DNA of 64,000 nucleotides, taken from Thalassovita mediterranea (GTDB lineage: Bacteria; Pseudomonadota; Alphaproteobacteria; Caulobacterales; Hyphomonadaceae). The stretch covers positions 1,612,001 to 1,676,000 of the forward strand of contig CP080408.1 in assembly GCA_019448215.1 (NCBI GenBank), given 5' to 3'. The notes below the pieces were generated by a model. It was not told the DNA's origin, ran no database searches, and saw only the letters and a list, made by a program, of their open reading frames with translations. This document shows positions 38,268-40,434 of this stretch, in pieces; within the stretch, counting starts at the first letter, position 1, and every line of letters starts with the position of its first letter. The position numbers were made by a program, and so were the translations under genes.

Positions 38268-38633
38268 ATGCCCCGTTCACGTAACAAAGTGCCGGCACAC
38301 GCCCGCCACAAGAAGATCATCAAGGCAGCCAAAGGTTATTATGGCCGCCGCAAGAATACTTTCCGCACGGCAAACGCTGCTGTCTGGAAAGCTGGCCAGT
38401 ACGCCTATATCGGCCGCAAGCAGAAGAAGCGCACCTTCCGTTCGCTCTGGATCCAGCGCATCAATGCTGCTGTCCGCATCCATGACGAAGAGCTGACCTA
38501 TTCGCGCTTCATCGACGGCCTCACCAAGGCTGGCGTCGAAGTTGACCGTAAGGTCATGGCTGACCTTGCCGTCCACGAACCAGAAGCTTTTGGCGCACTG
38601 GTGGAGAAGGCCAAGGGCGCGCTCGCAGCTTAA
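38268..38633 (+). CDS. rplT: 50S ribosomal protein L20
   Basis: A 121-residue assembly protein of the large subunit, with the basic helix [35 protein letters not shown] and the globular part [21 protein letters not shown]20 represses rpmI-rplT in several bacteria by binding the leader mRNA; the structured gap upstream of rpmI could be such a target. AGGAGG precedes the ATG. The stop TAA is followed by 91 bp containing the nested hairpins before pheS. Confidence 0.98.
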
Positions 38634-38668
38634 GCGTTCCGCTTTTCGCATTTCTCCGCTATTTCCGA

Positions 38669-38724
38669 CCGCCAAGGCGGGGCGGAAAAGCCCCGTTCGG
38701 CCTTAAACCCAACGGGGCTTTTTC
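38669..38724 (+). promoter_or_regulatory. Attenuator-like nested hairpins directly before pheS
   Basis: Four ordered segments can pair alternately. Segment 1 CCGCC (38669-38673) pairs with GGCGG (38676-38680). CGGGGC (38678-38683), overlapping segment 2, pairs with GCCCCG (38690-38695). GCCCCGTT (38690-38697) pairs with AACGGGGC (38711-38718), and outer A/T pairs extend this stem to 12 bp. T tracts follow at 38719-38723. The last stem is a textbook intrinsic terminator ending one base before the pheS ATG, and its 3' arm is the only ribosome-binding-site-like sequence. Escherichia coli has a pheM-coded attenuator at this same place. A Phe-rich leader ORF with a normal start codon was not found here. 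Confidence 0.7.
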
Positions 38725-39798
38725 ATGTCTGAACTCGATAAGATCGAAAAAGAAGCGCTCGACGCGCTGGCTGCAGCAGGCGACCTTGCTGCGCTCGACG
38801 CGGTACGCGTGGCCGAGCTCGGCAAGAAGGGCCGCATCTCTGGCCTGATGAAGACGCTTGGCGGCATGAGCCCGGAAGAGCGTCAGGACATGGGCCCCAA
38901 GCTCAATGGCCTGCGCAACCGTGTTCAGGACGCCGTAGAGGCGCGCAAGTCAGAGCTTGAAGAAGCCGAGCTGGAGAAGAAACTCCAGACCGAGCGTATC
39001 GACATGACCCTGCCGCCGGTTGCCGCGCCTGAGGGCAAGCTGCACCCGGTCATGCAGGTCTTCGAAGAGATCGCTGCCATCTTCGGCGATATGGGCTTCA
39101 CCGTCGCTGAAGGCCCGGACATTGAAGATGACTGGCATAACTTCACGGCGCTGAACTTCCCTGAAGGCCACCCGGCGCGCGAAACGCACGACACCTTCTT
39201 CTTCCACCCGCAGGAAGGCGCGGCGCCGAAGGTGCTGCGCACCCATACCAGCCCCGTCCAGGTGCGCGTGATGGAGGCCCAGAAGCCGCCAATCCGCATC
39301 CTCGTGCCGGGCCGCGTTTACCGCAATGACTGGGACGCAACCCACACGCCGATGTTCCATCAGGTCGAGGGTCTGGTCATCGAGAAGAACATCCATATGG
39401 GTCACCTCAAGGGCTGCCTGATCGACTTCGTGCGCGAGTTCTTCGAGGTCGACAATGTCGAGGCACGCTTCCGCCCGCACTTCTTCCCGTTCACCGAGCC
39501 ATCGGCCGAGATGGACGTGAAATATACCAAGGTCGGCGACTCGATCGAGATCGGGGCAGGCGACAGCTGGATGGAAATCCTCGGTTCCGGCATGGTCCAC
39601 CCGAACGTGCTGCGCAATTGCGGCATCGACCCGGATGAGTATCAGGGCTTCGCCTTCGGTATGGGCGTCGACAGGCTCGCCATGCTGAAATACGGCATGC
39701 CGGACCTTCGCCCCTATTTCGAAGCCGATGCAGGCTGGAGCCGTCACTATGGCTTCCGGCCATGGGCTACGCCCAGCGTCTCCGGCGGGCTGAGCTAG
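38725..39798 (+). CDS. pheS: Phenylalanine-tRNA ligase alpha subunit
   Basis: Catalytic subunit charging tRNA-Phe, 357 residues. Class II motifs are visible: [20 protein letters not shown] leading to motif 1, [13 protein letters not shown] with [20 protein letters not shown] (motif 2), and [16 protein letters not shown] (motif 3). The N-terminal coiled coil binds tRNA. The start ATG abuts the T-tract of the upstream terminator hairpin. The beta subunit gene is separated from it by an unrelated membrane-protein gene. Confidence 0.98.
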
Positions 39799-39813: not shown

Positions 39814-40434
39814 ATGGGTAACGGCAACAAGGCAGAAATGCTGATTGCGATCTGCGCGGTGATCACCAGCGCGATTGCAGTCTTCATTGCTTGGGACCAG
39901 GGACGCGTCATGCGTGCCCAGCAGCATGGCGCCGTCTTCCCTGTCGTCCAGATCGAGGGCTTCGTCTCGGAGACCCCCACAACTTCTGCAATGGGTATCC
40001 GCCTTACCAATAGCGGTGTCGGCCCGGCCCTGATCGAGCGGGTCGAAATGCTGAAGGATGGCGAGATCGTCGAGGACCTGACGCCCTATGCGGACACATT
40101 CCCGCCCGGCTATCAGCAATCCTGGTCGAGCTTGATTGGACGCGCTGTTGCGCCCGGCGACACCATCATGCCCCTGCGTGTCGACTGGCCGCGCGGGCAG
40201 GTGACGCTCGAACAGCGCAATGCAGCCGCTGCAGCGTGGAGCGAGCTTGATGTGGAAATCTGCTACTGCTCTGTCTTCGACCGCTGCTGGACGGCGCGCG
40301 GCCTTGGTATGGGCGTCAGCATGAGCCGTGCCGAGCCTGTAAAACGCTGCCAGCGCAGCGAAAAAGATATTTTCGAGGACCTCGCGGACGATGTGCGCGC
40401 CCCTCAAACCGAACCGACCCCGGAAGTGGAATAG
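39814..40434 (+). CDS. Unknown membrane-anchored protein inserted between pheS and pheT
   Basis: A 206-residue protein not recognised as a named family. Residues about 9-27 form one membrane helix (MLIAICAVITSAIAVFIAW); the rest is predicted extracytoplasmic or cytoplasmic beta-rich. The segment IRLTNSGVGPALIERVEMLK looks like an Ig-like strand pair, and EICYCSVFDRCWTARG is a Cys-rich, probably conserved motif, with another Cys in KRCQRS. The tail is acidic and Pro-rich. It starts 15 bp after pheS with AGGCGGGAC upstream and ends 3 bp before pheT, so it is co-transcribed with both. Base composition matches its neighbours. A link to tRNA charging is not implied by sequence. Confidence 0.8.
   Translation: MGNGNKAEMLIAICAVITSAIAVFIAWDQGRVMRAQQHGAVFPVVQIEGFVSETPTTSAMGIRLTNSGVGPALIERVEMLKDGEIVEDLTPYADTFPPGYQQSWSSLIGRAVAPGDTIMPLRVDWPRGQVTLEQRNAAAAAWSELDVEICYCSVFDRCWTARGLGMGVSMSRAEPVKRCQRSEKDIFEDLADDVRAPQTEPTPEVE

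What the first reader, a model, noticed from the sequence alone, without database searches (positions are those of the whole stretch)
38669..38727. pheS leader: overlapping terminator/antiterminator stems that also bury the start site
Seen directly: GGCGG/CGGGGC can pair either with CCGCC or with GCCCCG, and the same GCCCCG pairs with AACGGGGC in a 12-bp terminator whose T-tract ends one base before the pheS ATG. The only Shine-Dalgarno-like sequence is inside the 3' arm. This is the 1:2 / 2:3 / 3:4 logic of attenuators, at the position where Escherichia coli uses pheM. The right reading frame after the rplT stop is Phe-rich (TTC, TTT, TTC within seven codons) but has no normal start codon. 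The sensor may therefore be something other than a translated leader peptide, such as rplT ribosome release or a protein.
Basis: partly seen in the sequence, partly recalled or inferred. Interest (0 to 1): 0.7.

Follow-up and report, generated by a model that had tools for sequence, protein, structure and literature searches.

The report
Three-way RNA switch before pheS
A short RNA stretch between the genes for ribosomal protein L20 and phenylalanyl-tRNA synthetase can fold in competing ways that hide or expose the synthetase gene's start site; the folding is conserved in relatives, but the usual phenylalanine-counting leader peptide was not found, so what it senses is open.

Summary
The 91-nt gap between rplT (stop 38631-38633) and pheS (ATG 38725) holds arms that pair 1:2, 2:3 or 3:4; 0 of 500 shuffles and 0 of 500 genome segments score as high. 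33 loci of the window's family carry it before pheS, and 2:3 and 3:4 covary. Genus g12 of a second family keeps the layout with other letters; of six g12b loci all keep 1:2 and 2:3 and five keep 3:4, with compensatory changes. The only Shine-Dalgarno-like GGGG lies in arm 4; a T-run follows in 20 of 33, so start-site hiding is the constant feature. No leader peptide fits. Genus g13 has predicted Phe-leader attenuators on pheS in 7 loci with distant rplT, against 1 of 7 with adjacent rplT. In the window's family a promoter-like -10 overlaps arm 1, suggesting that RNA origin sets the switch: read-through RNA off, own-promoter RNA on. Energy estimates allow this only kinetically, shuffled upstream sequence does nearly as well, and g12 mostly lacks the promoter. 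Verdict: a leader-peptide-less switch on pheS, a new variant of attenuation; input unproven.

The parts
38268..38633 (+). rplT (ribosomal protein L20), upstream gene
   Evidence: Pfam PF00453, E 1.9e-43
38637..38642 (+). weak -35-like TTCCGC, 17 nt before the -10-like TATTTC (TTCACA at this place in the clade2 relatives)
   Evidence: best window score 9 of 13 (the scored hit used the overlapping GTTCCG), shuffle p 0.050
38651..38659 (+). conserved TTTCTCCGC (majority consensus in relatives TTTYTCCRC), complementary to arm 2
   Evidence: alignment; relatives; pairing 38654-38660:38676-38682; TTTCTCCGCTA occurs once in the genome
38658..38665 (+). -10-like GCTATTTC (Caulobacter RpoD consensus GCTANAWC), overlapping 1' and the first bases of arm 1; predicted transcription start near 38672, the end of arm 1
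   Evidence: consensus seen in PMC8144410 passages; start site inferred
38663..38672 (+). arm 1 (5' side of the 1:2 stem)
38676..38683 (+). arm 2; pairs with arm 1/1' or with arm 3
38686..38697 (+). arm 3 (core 38690-38697); pairs with arm 2 or arm 4
38711..38722 (+). arm 4, contains the only SD-like GGGG (38714-38717)
38719..38723 (+). T-run (5 T) after the GC part of arm 4; optional in relatives
   Evidence: run of 4 or more in 20 of 33 carriers
38725..39798 (+). pheS, the gene presumably controlled
   Evidence: Pfam PF01409 and PF02912

Best explanation
The gap is a cis-acting RNA switch on pheS without a leader peptide. OFF: arm 1 (or 1') takes arm 2, so arm 3 pairs with arm 4, which hides the SD-like GGGG and, where a T-run follows, can also end transcription. 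ON: arm 2 takes arm 3 and arm 4 stays free. Shown: the arms, their mutual exclusion, conservation with compensatory changes, the SD in arm 4, and that no leader ORF is kept. Inferred: that it regulates pheS, and the input. The input I favour for the window is the origin of the RNA: transcripts running in from rplT carry arm 1 and fold OFF; transcripts begun at a promoter that overlaps arm 1 lack it, form 2:3 first and are ON. The switch would keep pheS expression independent of the ribosomal-protein operon. I put about 0.8 on the switch itself and about half of that on this input.
For: Three-helix score: 0 of 500 shuffles, 0 of 500 genome segments. 2:3 and 3:4 covary in 31 distinct elements from 33 carriers: 2:3 outward position 2 is standard in 28 of 31 with four pair types (GU 6, UA 2, AU 10, CG 10); 0 of 2000 permutations, 24 and 21 of 2000 on 13 representatives. 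Six g12b loci: 1:2 all 7 pairs in 6 of 6, 2:3 all 9 in 6 of 6, 3:4 8 of 9 in 5 of 6, with paired changes in L273. Model R1: 35 strong hits (E<=2e-5) in 398 genomes of the order, one per genome, each found before pheS. Promoter: 32 carriers mean 9.38 against 5.92 in shuffles (17 at p<0.1); relatives without the element have similar boxes before pheS, e.g. f4 TCGACA-GCTAAATC (p 0.01-0.02) and L239 TTCACA-GCTAATCC (p 0.109). In 29 carrier gaps no terminator-like hairpin other than the arms was found, whereas 7 of 12 element-less gaps of the family (two of these inside a GNAT gene) and 27 of 38 outside it have one. Barrier into 2:3: mean 13.2 kcal/mol in read-through RNA, 4.6 in promoter-start RNA, higher in 33 of 33.
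Against: The promoter in the window is weak (p 0.050; nine Henriciella-like loci 0.05-0.43); L100 and L103 lack one, and only L276 of 14 g12 loci has one, so the origin idea cannot be general. At equilibrium 3:4 wins in both kinds of RNA in the window (p34 1.00), and before arm 4 is made 2:3 wins even in read-through RNA (0.74-1.00 in 32 carriers), so the gate would have to be kinetic. Shuffled upstream sequence gives much of the shift (-4.57 against -5.98 kcal/mol; 6 of 33 in the lowest tenth) and of the barrier (10.8; 11 of 33 in the top tenth). L096 and L098 have no clear P1 and no consistent shift. In eight clade2 loci the best terminator-like hit is the 2:3 hairpin itself, followed by TTTG, TTGT or similar, which would make 2:3 a weak stop rather than an antiterminator. 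The pair count of 1:2 plus 3:4 on A1 is only mildly above its shuffles. SD pairing is weak in several g4 loci (-1.8 to -3.0).
Confidence: 0.4

Rival explanations
1. Same three-helix switch, but acting on rplT-pheS read-through RNA and thrown by a bound factor (PheRS itself, L20, tRNA-Phe or another RNA-binding protein) at the conserved UUUYUCCRC / 1:2 region.
For: The T-rich motif and 1:2 stem are kept in six g12b loci that show no promoter, so arm 1 must be transcribed there. CCGC:GCGG in the window's family has a CCAC:GUGG counterpart in 4 of 8 g12a loci (read by eye; not in the minimum-energy folds). PMC2965389 passages name ThrRS and ribosomal proteins as autoregulators.
Against: No aptamer-like conserved core beyond the arms; no Rfam family reached its threshold; no direct evidence for any ligand.
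Confidence: 0.3
2. Ordinary: the hairpin is just the rplT operon terminator (or a structured start site) placed at pheS, and 2:3 is incidental complementarity.
For: In 20 of 33 carriers a T-run follows; no terminator-like hairpin other than the arms is in 29 carrier gaps; 3:4 is the most stable single helix in the window.
Against: 2:3 covaries where 3:4 does not, e.g. U-A in L001 where 3:4 has a mismatch; a 9-bp 2:3 is kept in 6 of 6 g12b loci; 13 of 33 carriers have no T-run yet keep arms 2-4.
Confidence: 0.2
3. Classical Phe leader-peptide attenuator like pheM.
For: Position between rplT and pheS; helix logic; a genus of the same order (g13) has such predicted leaders.
Against: No start codon with a consistent frame in carriers; the motif falls in all three frames relative to rplT; no kept Phe codon run.
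Confidence: 0.05
4. The ribosome ending rplT masks arm 1 and so couples pheS to rplT translation.
For: In g13 loci L317 and L323 (rplT adjacent) arm 1 starts 8 nt after the rplT stop.
Against: In the window arm 1' starts 20 nt past the stop; L114, L141, L175 and L178 have insertions of about 30-107 nt but keep the element.
Confidence: 0.05

Closest known systems
Escherichia coli pheM-pheST attenuator (classical leader-peptide attenuation)
   Same: Same gene, same place after rplT, alternative helices that terminate or read on (passages of PMC5371410)
   Different: No Phe-rich leader ORF found; SD hidden in the last arm; T-run optional in relatives; a promoter-like -10 overlaps arm 1
Predicted Phe-leader attenuator of genus g13 (same order), found here
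   Same: Arms 2, 3, 4 before pheS with T-run
   Different: Seven g13 loci with rplT 478-905 nt away carry leaders such as MPKFEFFFGSAH ending 2 nt before arm 2; six of seven rplT-adjacent g13 loci do not; arm letters unrelated to the window's
IS10 transposase and phage T4 gene e: RNA from outside promoters hides the start site, RNA from the inner promoter does not (recalled; searches gave no passage on it)
   Same: Logic of the favoured input: read-through RNA carries an extra 5' arm
   Different: As recalled, those use one hairpin; here a three-way competition, on a housekeeping gene
T-box leaders of aminoacyl-tRNA synthetase genes (recalled)
   Same: Leader RNA controlling a synthetase gene by terminator or SD hiding
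   Different: No T-box or other Rfam match at gathering score in the window

Membership tests
Classical leader-peptide attenuator (pheM type) | mutually exclusive 1:2, 2:3, 3:4 helices | tested here: met
Classical leader-peptide attenuator (pheM type) | translated leader ORF with cognate (Phe) codons | tested here: not met
   no start codon in a kept frame, no kept Phe run; a comparable scan finds leaders in 7 of 14 g13 loci, 8 counting a TTG-started one
Classical leader-peptide attenuator (pheM type) | intrinsic terminator before the gene | tested here: inconclusive
   window has a 12-bp stem and 5 T; 20 of 33 carriers have 4 or more T; termination itself not measured
Classical leader-peptide attenuator (pheM type) | response to charging of tRNA-Phe | not testable with these tools
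   needs expression data
T-box and other Rfam leader families | match to the family covariance model | tested here: not met
   0 matches at gathering score in the 64-kb window; best-scoring sub-threshold match 21.3 of 46 bits
Translational SD-hiding leader | SD-like sequence inside one alternative helix | tested here: met
   GGGG, GAG(G) or GGAGG in arm 4 of 33 of 33 carriers; pairing with a recalled anti-SD -5.0 in the window, only -1.8 to -3.0 in some g4 loci
Origin-dependent gate (IS10 / T4 e type) | promoter inside the 5' arm | tested here: inconclusive
   supported in clade2, weak in the window, not found in g12b
Origin-dependent gate (IS10 / T4 e type) | read-through and promoter-start RNA fold differently | tested here: inconclusive
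   shift in 30 of 32 but much of it also with shuffled upstream sequence; window itself 3:4 in both at equilibrium

The most novel reading that the evidence does not exclude
An attenuator-type RNA that reads where its own transcript began: pheS RNA from its own promoter folds open because the promoter overlaps arm 1, while read-through from the L20 operon carries arm 1 and folds shut. No ligand, peptide or protein is needed, and in a genus of the same order the role passes to a Phe leader peptide in loci where rplT is far away.
Probability: 0.3. Interest if true: 0.72.

Novelty: new variant of a known kind. Interest (0 to 1): 0.5.

Why it matters
Aminoacyl-tRNA synthetase genes are textbook attenuation targets, usually with a leader peptide or a T-box as sensor (recalled). 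Here the helix logic is conserved in two families without a detectable leader peptide or T-box, in the same order as a genus with the textbook version. That makes a direct comparison possible of how an attenuator gains or loses its sensor, and offers a testable case of an RNA switch set by transcript origin.

Tried and rejected
Leader peptide: frames and start codons around the element, rejected; the recurring string AFLR-stop follows from the conserved nucleotides. Learning the genome's own promoter motif by expectation maximisation on 464 kb failed: three starting points ended in three different motifs, and TTGAC-anchored profiles were flat; I fell back on the published Caulobacter consensus. 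My first barrier estimate had a faulty 'no 2:3' state that also lost the 1:2 stem; redone. The pair count on A1 is limited by MAFFT placing the lower 1:2 stem differently between clades (my reading). The six weak R1 hits (E 0.001-0.01; two in genus g5 of the same family, four in other families) have no pheS in the roughly 2.1 kb fetched around them and were dropped. The three-helix scan missed several g12 loci, e.g. those whose 3:4 has a mismatch; 39 of its 47 hits are carriers or g12, 2 are the g13-type attenuators L122 and L117, and 6 (L138, L140, L075, L011, L031, L015) are probably chance, since 47 of 830 shuffles also score above zero and 14 reach 50. The element-less promoter set (60 regions) holds four regions that are element-bearing (L213, L103, L133, L135) and some duplicates of one genome. 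Literature: 10 searches; judged from titles and abstract starts, none listed a paper on a pheS leader in these bacteria; only open-licence papers were searched and some lists were capped. Papers seen as passages only: PMC8144410, PMC5371410, PMC4265352 (nothing useful), PMC2965389, PMC1262725, PMC1273637.

Full report
What is there. The window comes from a Henriciella-like genome (best named L20 hits are Henriciella; window = G000:C1:1612001-1676000). Order of genes: L35, L20 (rplT), 91-nt gap, pheS, an ORF without Pfam match, pheT. The gap holds arms 1 (38663-38672) or 1' (38654-38660), 2 (38676-38683), 3 (38686-38697) and 4 (38711-38722). Energies of single helices in the window: 1:2 -14.2, 1':2 -8.9, 2:3 -15.8, 3:4 -17.1 kcal/mol. 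The three-helix score is 70.0; 0 of 500 dinucleotide shuffles and 0 of 500 random segments of the same genome reach it.

Who has it. L20 loci were taken from 61 genomes and 80 named loci, and the gaps read where pheS follows. Of 29 genomes of the own genus, 25 are hit by model R1 and a further one, G026, carries it (L108); the other three have a GNAT acetyltransferase gene (L085, L094; Pfam run on L085 and on L002, whose ORF is identical to L094's) or a long inverted repeat (L101) in the gap. R1 over 398 genomes of the order gave 41 hits at E<=0.01: 35 strong ones (E<=2e-5), in family f1 only (g1 25, g4 9, g22 1) and before pheS, and 6 weak ones without pheS nearby. In L182 the element precedes a divergent PheS-like ORF. 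Over 385 genomes of the class at E<=0.001 only the own genome was hit. The own genome has one strong match; the next (E 0.08) is the same place on the other strand.

A second family. Genus g12 of family f4 has the same layout with different letters in the gap (17 loci from 16 of 18 genomes; pheS was not confirmed by BLAST in L267; L269 and L271 have a degraded 3:4; L265 and L269 carry insertions). In six g12b loci: 1:2 CGUCCCC:GGGGACG (CAUCCCC:GGGGAUG in L273) in 6 of 6, 2:3 CCCGUGGGG:CCUCGCGGG with variants in 6 of 6, 3:4 ACGUCCUCG:CGAGAACGU with one mismatch in 5 of 6. In eight g12a loci 3:4 has 7 uninterrupted pairs, while 2:3 is shorter (4 to 8 pairs, with a G-U). An annotation-free scan of 166 distinct pheS upstream regions flags 47, 39 of them carriers or g12, against 47 of 830 shuffles.

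Covariation. In 31 distinct elements, position 2 beyond the 2:3 core is G-U, U-A, A-U or C-G (28 of 31 standard), position 3 A-U or G-C (29 of 31). Mean extension 3.10 against 2.10 when arms are swapped between species (0 of 2000); 3:4 2.45 against 1.68 (0 of 2000); with 13 representatives 24 and 21 of 2000. Relatedness of the sequences weakens these numbers; four pair types in separate lineages are the stronger point. The pair count of 1:2 plus 3:4 on A1 is only mildly above its shuffles (covariation score reached by 32 of 500).

Start-site hiding is the constant. A T-run of at least 4 follows arm 4 in 20 of 33 carriers; in g4 and g22 it is gone but arm 4 keeps GAG or GAGG before the ATG, and L100 has GGAGG in arm 4 with one bulged A. 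SD strength in the window (-5.0) is like that of 19 element-less relatives (mean -4.4), using a recalled anti-SD; some g4 loci are weak, -1.8 to -3.0. In 29 carrier gaps the only terminator-like hairpins are the arms themselves (5 gaps have none); in eight clade2 loci the best-scoring one is 2:3 with a short T stretch, a point against reading 2:3 purely as antiterminator.

No leader peptide. Frames, starts and Phe codons are not kept. By contrast, in genus g13 of family f5, 14 of 24 loci show an attenuator-like hairpin before pheS; the ten others, none with rplT close by, do not match that pattern. The seven of the 14 with rplT 478-905 nt away have Phe leaders (MPKFEFFFGSAH, MTFFKFFFRSVD, MTFFEFFFRSVD and others) ending 2 nt before arm 2; of the seven with rplT at 162-207 nt only L317 has a TTG-started MSFFRPRPTPD. 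In four of these seven (L308, L311, L317, L323) the RNA before arm 3 folds an arm 1 near rplT against arm 2 (e.g. CGUC-CCCGG with CCGGG-U-GACG), and its letters resemble g12b arm 1. So next to rplT the peptide is mostly absent, and present in the hairpin-bearing loci away from it.

Promoter. The -10-like GCTANNNC overlapping arm 1 fits the Caulobacter consensus quoted in PMC8144410. Scores: 32 carriers mean 9.38 against 5.92 in shuffles, 17 at p<0.1; 60 other regions (four of them in fact element-bearing) 8.30 against 5.15, 21 at p<0.1. The window itself is at p 0.050; L100 at 0.96. Of 14 g12 loci only L276 scores. If real, transcription would start near 38672, so pheS's own RNA would lack nearly all of arm 1.

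Energy tests of the origin idea. The preference for 3:4 over 2:3 is stronger in read-through RNA by 5.2 kcal/mol on average (30 of 32; -1.1 for the window with 75 nt and -4.8 with 30 nt upstream); the barrier into 2:3 is 13.2 against 4.6 (33 of 33). But shuffled upstream sequence gives -4.57 against -5.98 and a barrier of 10.8, so arm 1 is not clearly tuned. At equilibrium the window folds 3:4 in both RNAs; in the eight g4 loci tested the promoter-start RNA favours 2:3, while read-through RNA has 3:4 at 0.01 to 0.75; g22 (L178) folds 3:4 in both. The idea therefore rests on kinetics and stays a hypothesis.

Conclusion. A conserved three-way switch on pheS without leader peptide is well supported; its input is not. 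It works like an attenuator but fails the leader-peptide criterion, so I file it as a new variant and not as a member of the pheM class.

Noticed in passing
L309, L310, L313, L315, L318, L319, L324 (within 200 nt upstream of pheS): Genus g13 has predicted Phe-rich leader peptides (e.g. MPKFEFFFGSAH, MTFFKFFFRSVD) ending 2 nt before the antiterminator arm of a T-run hairpin upstream of pheS: a textbook-like Phe attenuator in Alphaproteobacteria.
   Followed up: partly
L002:3372-3827, L094:1872-2327, L085:1036-1491 (between rplT and pheS): A GNAT-family acetyltransferase gene (Pfam PF00583 for L002 and L085) sits between rplT and pheS, an SD-like GGAG precedes pheS, and the switch is gone.
   Followed up: partly
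L006 and L101, rplT-pheS gap: The switch is replaced by an inverted repeat of about 28 bp (read by eye) whose 3' arm runs up to the start-site region.
   Followed up: no
L097, 100-nt rplT-pheS gap: CGGCCCTGCT upstream of a predicted pheS promoter is complementary to AGCAGGGCCG beside the start codon: possibly a second, unrelated way to shut read-through RNA.
   Followed up: no
L131, L138, L214, L216 (family f2): Predicted -10 boxes (CTAGACG) lie only 9-10 nt before the pheS ATG (shuffle p 0.01-0.26), suggesting leaderless pheS mRNA there.
   Followed up: no
L269, rplT-pheS gap: An insertion of well over 100 nt separates arms 3 and 4 of the g12 switch, which looks degraded.
   Followed up: no
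window 39814-40434 +: A 206-aa ORF without Pfam match lies between pheS and pheT, which are usually adjacent (recalled).
   Followed up: partly
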